Assembly (NCBI GenBank): GCA_009837445.1
Contig: VXTM01000020.1
Location: 1-64,000, forward strand
DNA: 64,000 bases
Source: Acidimicrobiaceae bacterium
GTDB lineage: Bacteria; Actinomycetota; Acidimicrobiia; Acidimicrobiales; Aldehydirespiratoraceae
Direction of reading: 5' to 3'
Shown here: one piece after another, positions 62,717 to 64,000 of the stretch
How positions within the stretch are numbered: position 1 is the first letter of the stretch
Layout: each line of letters begins with the position of its first letter
Position numbers and translations under genes: made by a program
Notes under the pieces: generated by a model
The model's input: the letters and a program-made list of their open reading frames with translations, nothing else
What the model was told of the DNA's origin: nothing
The model's database searches: none

Positions 62717-63037
62717 CTAGGACTCGTCGTCCGCCGAGTCGTCAGCGGCTTCGTCGTCGGCTTCAGCGACGTCGTCGGCAGGTTCGGCCACCTTGCCGGC
62801 CACGGAATCCCGGGAGAGCTTCAACTCAACGTCGGGGGCCACTTCGAGCCACACCACGGCCTCTTCGACCTCGACCACCACGCCGTGGATGCCGGCGTTG
62901 GTCACTACCTCGTCACCCACTTGCAGGGAGCGCACCAGCTCCCGGCGAGCCTTCTCCCGCTTCTGCTGGGGACGCAGCAGAAGGTAGTAGAACGCGCCGA
63001 TGACGAGAATGAGGAAGAAGAAGGAGCCGATATCCAT
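62717..63037 (-). CDS. yajC: Preprotein translocase subunit YajC
   Basis: FFFLILVIGAFYYLLLRPQQKREKARRELVRSLQVGDEVVTNAGIHG. Confidence 0.94.
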   Translation of the reverse strand: MDIGSFFFLILVIGAFYYLLLRPQQKREKARRELVRSLQVGDEVVTNAGIHGVVVEVEEAVVWLEVAPDVELKLSRDSVAGKVAEPADDVAEADDEAADDSADDES

Positions 63038-63046
63038 TCCCCGAGC

Positions 63047-64000
63047 CTATTTGAAGACGCGGCTGACGCCTGCGCGCAACTCGTCGAATGTCCCGGCCCC
63101 CACCGCGGCCCGCACCCGATCCATGAGGCGCAGCAGCCACGCCAGGTTGTGAAGGGTGACGAGCCGGGCCGCGGTGGGCTCGTGCGTGACCAGCAGATGC
63201 CGGAGGTAGCCCCGTGACCAGCGGCCAGCTGGGCTATCGGGAAAGGAGGGGTCGAGAGGCTCGTCGCTGCCGGCATGGCGGGCGGCTGAGAGGTTGTAGC
63301 GGCCCGCGTCGCTGAGGACCGTGCCGTGACGGCCCAGACGGGTGGGCAGGACGCAGTCGAACATGTCGATGCCGCGGGCGACCGCCTCCACGATGCCCAC
63401 CGGGTCGCCCAGACCCATGAAGTACCGGGGGCTGTCGGCGGGCAGTACGGCGGTGCAGGACTCCAGGGCGGCCAGCATCGCAGGTCGCTCCTCGCCGACC
63501 GACAGCCCGCCCACTGCATACCCGTCGAATCCGATCTCCACGGTTCGTTCAGCAGACTCGCGCCGCAGGTCAGGCTCGGCGCCGCCCTGGACGATCCCGA
63601 ACTGGCACTGGCGCTGCGCCGCGTCGGGGTGGGCTGTGAACGCGTCACGGCCGCGCTCGGCCCAGACGGCGGTGCGGCTGACAGCCTCCTCGAGGACGGG
63701 CCGCTCCGCCACCGCGGAGGGGCACACGTCGAGCACCATGGTGATGTCGGCGCCGATGAGGGCCTGCTCGGTCACCGCGGCCTCGGGCGTGAGCCGGCAG
63801 GGCGATCCGTCGTAGACCGACGCGAAGCTGGCGCCGTCGTCGTCCACGGCAGGGTCCAGCGAGTAGATCTGGTAACCGCCCGAGTCGGTGAGCACATGAC
63901 CCGACCAGTCAGCGAAGCCGTGAATGCCGCCCAGGCGGGCGACGGTCTCGGACCCGGGTCGCAGCATCAGGTGGTAGGTGTTGGCCAGCACCACCTCCAC
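63047..64000 (-). CDS. tgt: Queuine tRNA-ribosyltransferase homologue, 5' end outside window; zinc-ligand cysteines absent
   Basis: ANTYHLMLRPG; LTDSGGYQIYSL; FGIVQGG; GYAVGGLSVGE; GIDMFDCVLPTRLGRHG; TLHNLAW. Confidence 0.92.
   Translation of the reverse strand: MEVVLANTYHLMLRPGSETVARLGGIHGFADWSGHVLTDSGGYQIYSLDPAVDDDGASFASVYDGSPCRLTPEAAVTEQALIGADITMVLDVCPSAVAERPVLEEAVSRTAVWAERGRDAFTAHPDAAQRQCQFGIVQGGAEPDLRRESAERTVEIGFDGYAVGGLSVGEERPAMLAALESCTAVLPADSPRYFMGLGDPVGIVEAVARGIDMFDCVLPTRLGRHGTVLSDAGRYNLSAARHAGSDEPLDPSFPDSPAGRWSRGYLRHLLVTHEPTAARLVTLHNLAWLLRLMDRVRAAVGAGTFDELRAGVSRVFK

What the first reader, a model, noticed from the sequence alone, without database searches (positions are those of the whole stretch)
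63047..64000. TGT homologue that has lost its structural zinc-binding CxCxxC motif
The translated C-terminus reads EPLDPSFPDSPAGRWSRGYLRHL where the TGT family has [21 protein letters not shown] (E. coli: [22 protein letters not shown]). All three Cys ligands are replaced, and only the downstream His in TLHNL remains. The catalytic and substrate-binding motifs (LTDSGGYQIYSL, FGIVQGG, GGLSVGE, FDCVxPTR) are intact, and no frameshift is visible. The zinc site is a family hallmark, so this may be a lineage-specific metal-independent TGT or one with altered substrate or partner.
Basis: partly seen in the sequence, partly recalled or inferred. Interest (0 to 1): 0.68.

Follow-up and report, generated by a model that had tools for sequence, protein, structure and literature searches.

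The report
tRNA-modifying enzyme lacking its zinc site
This is an ordinary-looking bacterial tRNA-guanine transglycosylase (the enzyme that starts queuosine in tRNA) whose textbook zinc site has been replaced, a change shared by its whole bacterial family and made independently in rhizobia, where the enzyme still works, so zinc is probably not essential for it.

Summary
The ORF at window 63047-64000 (-), completed from the genome contig to 370 aa, is a Tgt (TIGR00430 374.6 bits, cut-off 306.75). Its zinc ligands, Z. mobilis numbering, are C318F, C320D and C323A; His349 is kept. It is not an error: all 25 sampled TGTs of the same family lack the three Cys. In the order (Acidimicrobiia; probably Acidimicrobiales) 16 of 49 families lack the site and 33 keep it, never mixed within a family.

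It is not unique to this lineage. All 40 Rhizobiaceae sampled, and other Alphaproteobacteria, also lack ligands. S. meliloti Tgt has lost C318, C323 and His349, yet its tgt mutant behaves as a queuosine-pathway mutant that preQ1 cannot rescue (PMC3568095).

Active-site, preQ1-pocket and dimer hot-spot residues are kept, dN/dS is 0.12-0.18, the former zinc loop is modelled at pLDDT about 95, and QueA is adjacent with QueG elsewhere in the genome. Best explanation: an active preQ1-inserting Tgt whose zinc knuckle became a hydrophobic F/W-x-x-x-P-A loop. Altered substrate or partner is unsupported. No searchable paper describes zinc-less TGTs; one states that TGT requires zinc. Metal content was not measured.

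The parts
63047..64000 (-). tgt, tRNA-guanine(34) transglycosylase, 3' 317 codons; the gene continues beyond the window to contig C8 position 64159 (370 aa in all)
63227..63244 (-). former zinc knuckle: codons for Phe306, Pro, Asp308, Ser, Pro, Ala311, in place of C-x-C-x-x-C (Z. mobilis Cys318, Cys320, Cys323)
   Evidence: sequence; alignment to 1enu
63149..63151 (-). His337 (= Z. mobilis His349), the only zinc ligand retained
63356..63358 (-). Asp268 (= catalytic nucleophile Asp280)
63884..63886 (-). Asp92 (= Asp102 of the active site)
62717..63037 (-). yajC-like ORF directly downstream of tgt; queA, tgt and yajC are also consecutive in the E. coli record
   Evidence: ORF; gene name by inference; E. 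coli gene order

Best explanation
The gene encodes an active bacterial-type Tgt that exchanges G34 for preQ1 in GUN-anticodon tRNAs; QueA and QueG then finish queuosine. Shown: the fold class, complete active site and preQ1 pocket, retained dimer hot-spot residues, purifying selection, adjacent queA and a queG in the genome, and loss of the three zinc cysteines throughout the family. Inferred: the C-terminal subdomain, which zinc staples in other TGTs, is held together without metal by a short loop in which Cys318 became a bulky hydrophobic residue (mostly Phe, Leu or Trp) and the residues at 322-323 became mostly Pro-Ala. The loop still positions the Trp326/Tyr330/His333 helix for dimerisation and tRNA binding. 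The site was lost at least twice independently (this order; Alphaproteobacteria), more likely several times, and the enzyme kept its job.
For: Equivalog-level match to TIGR00430 (374.6 bits, cut-off 306.75) and QueA next door (340.3, cut-off 324); QueG in own genome above cut-off. Only one TGT in the genome and one per genome in 16 other genomes with altered sites. D102, D156, Q203, G230, V233, E235, D280, R286 and R289 are invariant in 65 of 65 Cys-less order sequences; H333 and Y330 invariant and position 326 always aromatic. dN/dS 0.12-0.18 within the genus. AlphaFold2 pLDDT 91 overall, blocks 301-310 and 311-320 at 95 and 96; Foldseek TM 0.94 to Z. mobilis TGT. Replacements are patterned: position 318 Phe/Leu/Trp in 57 of 65, 322 Pro in 54, 323 Ala in 43. 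State constant within each family: 16 families without, 33 with. Parsimony needs 10 changes over 109 TGTs, starred branches force at least 4. Functional analogue: S. meliloti Tgt reads LDEQSSCPATRDYSR...WNNL, and its tgt mutant has the que phenotypes and is not rescued by preQ1 (PMC3568095).
Against: No enzyme of this clade has been assayed and metal content is unmeasured. E. coli TGT has been described as requiring zinc (PMC9508795, citing Chong 1995). Asp308 with His337 could still hold a weak or different metal in this species, though position 308 is not conserved as a ligand across the clade. The model was built from an alignment that includes Cys-bearing relatives, and AlphaFold tends to reproduce the family fold. 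S. meliloti keeps one Cys (C320). The S. meliloti evidence is phenotypic; Q in tRNA was not measured in the passages read.
Confidence: 0.85

Rival explanations
1. Active Tgt that still binds a metal with an altered ligand set (for example Asp308, His337, solvent or other side chains).
For: His337 is retained in 65 of 65 Cys-less order sequences although it drifts to Asn, Val or Ser in Rhizobiaceae; position 308 is Asp or Glu in 29 of 65.
Against: Position 308 is also Ala, Gly, Gln, Asn, Lys or Thr in relatives; 306 is hydrophobic and 311 mostly Ala, so no conserved set of three or four ligands remains. The His is equally invariant in zinc-bearing relatives and may be kept for packing.
Confidence: 0.1
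2. A Tgt-like enzyme with changed RNA or base specificity, or a non-catalytic partner subunit like QTRT2.
For: The C-terminal zinc subdomain contributes to tRNA binding, so replacing its core could alter recognition (PMC6165067).
Against: Catalytic Asp102 and Asp280 intact, whereas QTRT2 has lost them; preQ1 pocket including Val233 intact, and the one deviation seen (Val for Glu157) is shared with Cys-bearing members of the order; only TGT in the genome; adjacent queA and a queG elsewhere.
Confidence: 0.05
3. Decaying gene or sequencing artefact.
For: None beyond the missing motif.
Against: Same state in 25 of 25 family members from independent assemblies; dN/dS 0.12-0.18; full-length ORF.
Confidence: 0.01
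4. An add-on to the best explanation, about cause: the loss is a zinc-sparing adaptation (selection to lower the zinc quota), rather than neutral replacement at a dispensable site.
For: Convergent loss in at least two phyla including SAR11-like members (L110, L091), all-or-none pattern by family in the order.
Against: Not tested against zinc-free ribosomal paralogues, Zur regulons or habitat; Rhizobiaceae are not obviously zinc-poor. Neutral replacement explains the same data.
Confidence: 0.2

Closest known systems
Bacterial tRNA-guanine(34) transglycosylase Tgt (TIGR00430; Z. mobilis 1enu, E. coli)
   Same: Fold (TM 0.94), catalytic Asp pair, preQ1 pocket, dimer hot spot, queA-tgt-yajC gene order as in E. 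coli.
   Different: Three of four zinc ligands replaced by Phe, Asp and Ala.
Sinorhizobium meliloti Tgt and Rhizobiaceae relatives
   Same: Zinc site also lost; single TGT per genome; genetically required in the queuosine pathway (PMC3568095).
   Different: Different replacements: Ser-x-Cys-x-x-Ala/Ser/Thr and His to Asn; apparently an independent loss.
Bartonella henselae bTGT
   Same: Partially complements an E. coli Q-minus tgt mutant with preQ1 (PMC11570991); Bartonella is a relative of rhizobia, placed in Rhizobiaceae by GTDB (my knowledge).
   Different: Its zinc residues were not inspected here; the paper does not mention zinc.
Archaeosine TGT (TgtA), DpdA, QTRT2
   Same: TGT superfamily.
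   Different: TgtA 112.6 bits against a cut-off of 350, DpdA 16.1 against 200; QTRT2 lacks the catalytic Asp residues that are present here.

Membership tests
Bacterial Tgt (TIGR00430 / PF01702) | Score above curated family cut-off | tested here: met
   TIGR00430 374.6 bits vs 306.75; PF01702 408.6 vs 26.3
Bacterial Tgt (TIGR00430 / PF01702) | Catalytic Asp102 and Asp280 | tested here: met
   Asp92 and Asp268; invariant in all sequences
Bacterial Tgt (TIGR00430 / PF01702) | preQ1 pocket (Asp156, Gln203, Gly230, Leu231, Val233) | tested here: met
Bacterial Tgt (TIGR00430 / PF01702) | Structural zinc site Cys318, Cys320, Cys323, His349 (a common hallmark; shown here not to be defining) | tested here: not met
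   Only His retained. Genetically functional S. meliloti Tgt fails the same feature (PMC3568095), so it is common but not defining.
Bacterial Tgt (TIGR00430 / PF01702) | Homodimer via Phe92, Trp326, Tyr330, His333 cluster | tested here: inconclusive
   Residues conserved (hot spot as in PMC5395182); the dimer itself was not modelled
Bacterial Tgt (TIGR00430 / PF01702) | Inserts preQ1 at G34 of GUN tRNAs | not testable with these tools
   No assay; pathway genes QueA and QueG present
Archaeosine TGT (TIGR00432) | Score above family cut-off | tested here: not met
   112.6 vs 350
DpdA (NF041059) | Score above family cut-off | tested here: not met
   16.1 vs 200

The most novel reading that the evidence does not exclude
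Bacterial TGT does not need zinc: metal-free, fully active TGTs evolved convergently in Actinomycetota and Alphaproteobacteria by rebuilding the zinc knuckle as a metal-free loop, against the published statement that TGT requires zinc.
Probability: 0.7. Interest if true: 0.5.

Novelty: new variant of a known kind. Interest (0 to 1): 0.4.

Why it matters
The zinc domain is called a hallmark of TGTs (PMC6165067) and TGT is listed as requiring zinc, part of the argument linking queuosine to metal homeostasis (PMC9508795). If whole families make Q with TGTs that cannot build the site, that link is lineage-dependent and the zinc is structural and replaceable. The clade offers natural controls (33 families with, 16 without, never mixed) for asking what replaces a zinc staple, and S. 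meliloti and Agrobacterium are tractable hosts.

Tried and rejected
Artefact or pseudogene: rejected. Second, zinc-bearing TGT elsewhere in the genome: none. DpdA, TgtA or QTRT2 identity: rejected. Coupling of zinc loss to loss of de novo preQ1 synthesis: QueF is missing in family f1 and the sampled f17 genome G040, but present in Cys-less f13, f18, f25, f40, f54, f57 and f59 and missing in some zinc-bearing families, so no strict coupling. Several losses inside the order: the first tree splits the Cys-less rows, but holding 15 families as one clade is not rejected (p-AU 0.651, higher likelihood), so one loss plus f59 is possible; the test that includes f59 did not finish. QueH: absent in all 31 relatives searched; the last step falls to QueG. 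Literature searches for zinc-less TGTs found nothing.

Full report
What is there. The minus-strand ORF at 63047-64000 is the 3' part of a 370-codon tgt gene (contig C8 63047-64159). It scores above the curated cut-offs for Tgt (TIGR00430, 374.6 vs 306.75 bits) and the ORF upstream of it scores above cut-off for QueA (340.3 vs 324). Downstream lies a yajC-like ORF and then SecD/SecF-like ORFs (names by inspection). The E. coli record shows the same queA-tgt-yajC order. Gap-free alignment in this stretch to Z. mobilis TGT 1enu puts Phe306, Asp308, Ala311 and His337 at the zinc ligands Cys318, Cys320, Cys323 and His349.

It is not an error. All 25 TGTs sampled from the window's own family, across ten genera, lack all three Cys. 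Loop codons differ synonymously, and dN/dS over the gene is 0.12-0.18 within the genus. There is no other TGT in the genome.

How far it extends. Named relatives place the genome in Acidimicrobiia, probably Acidimicrobiales (inference). Across 49 families of the order with a TGT, 33 keep C-x-C-x-x-C and 16 do not, one of the 16 (f25) keeping the first Cys and f40 members keeping one Cys near the second position, and no family is mixed. Outside it, all 40 sampled Rhizobiaceae read Ser-x-Cys-x-x-Ala/Ser/Thr, mostly with His349 changed to Asn. Caulobacter, Erythrobacter, Methylocapsa, an Acetobacteraceae member and SAR11 also lack ligands. On a tree of 109 TGTs built without the zinc columns, the state needs at least 10 changes, and well-supported branches force at least 4. 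Inside the order a single loss covering 15 families is not rejected.

What replaced it. In the Cys-less order sequences, position 318 is Phe, Leu or Trp in 57 of 65, position 322 is Pro in 54 and position 323 is Ala in 43, while Asp102, Asp156, Gln203, Gly230, Val233, Glu235, Asp280, Arg286 and Arg289 are invariant and the dimer hot spot (Phe92, aromatic 326, Tyr330, His333) is kept (hot spot defined in PMC5395182). AlphaFold2 models the loop at pLDDT 95-96, and the model matches Z. mobilis TGT at TM 0.94. A hydrophobic plug in place of the metal is my inference; coordinates could not be inspected.

Does it work? No member of this clade has been assayed. But Sinorhizobium meliloti Tgt, read here from CP090106.1, has lost Cys318, Cys323 and His349. 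In S. meliloti the tgt mutant shares the phenotypes of queC and queF mutants and, unlike them, is not rescued by preQ1, as expected for a working Tgt (PMC3568095). The strain read here is not the strain of that paper (1021); that they share the sequence is inferred from all 40 Rhizobiaceae agreeing. B. henselae TGT, from a relative of rhizobia, partially complements an E. coli tgt mutant (PMC11570991), though its zinc residues were not checked here. The own genome has QueA adjacent and QueG, so the tRNA-level Q steps are present.

What is known. The literature I could search calls the zinc domain a hallmark and says TGT requires zinc (PMC6165067; PMC9508795). I found no description of zinc-less TGTs, but the library is partial and database annotators may have noted it. 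Verdict: a real, recurrent variant of a known enzyme, most likely a normal preQ1-inserting Tgt without its zinc; not a new function.

Noticed in passing
own genus (G000-G015) and family f1 genomes G016, G017, G196: These genomes have Tgt, QueG and (own genome) QueA but no QueF; in the genus there is also no convincing QueC (one exception, G013), no QPTR (PF02592) and no QueT (PF06177), so preQ1 must come by an unidentified transporter or route.
   Followed up: partly
L265 (contig C8 63000-78000): Genes upstream of queA include RuvB, a PdxS-like SOR/SNZ protein, a DUF3048 protein, a glycosyltransferase and a lipid-acyltransferase-like gene; no obvious preQ1 transporter among the ten ORFs scanned.
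   Followed up: partly
G026 and G029 (Cys-bearing, same order): These lack QueF but carry a QPTR transporter, showing that preQ1/preQ0 salvage by a known route also occurs in zinc-bearing members of the order.
   Followed up: no
order census, 148 genomes: 33 of 148 genomes of the order have no TGT at all, including 26 that are at least 90% complete, so Q is patchy in the order.
   Followed up: no
CP090106.1 (L267): A 3.7 Mb S. meliloti record labelled plasmid pSymB carries tgt and has the size of the chromosome; probably mislabelled.
   Followed up: no
L032, L033, L029, L025, L035, L036, L038, L039: Several family members read PAR or PSR instead of PTR after the catalytic FDCV motif.
   Followed up: no
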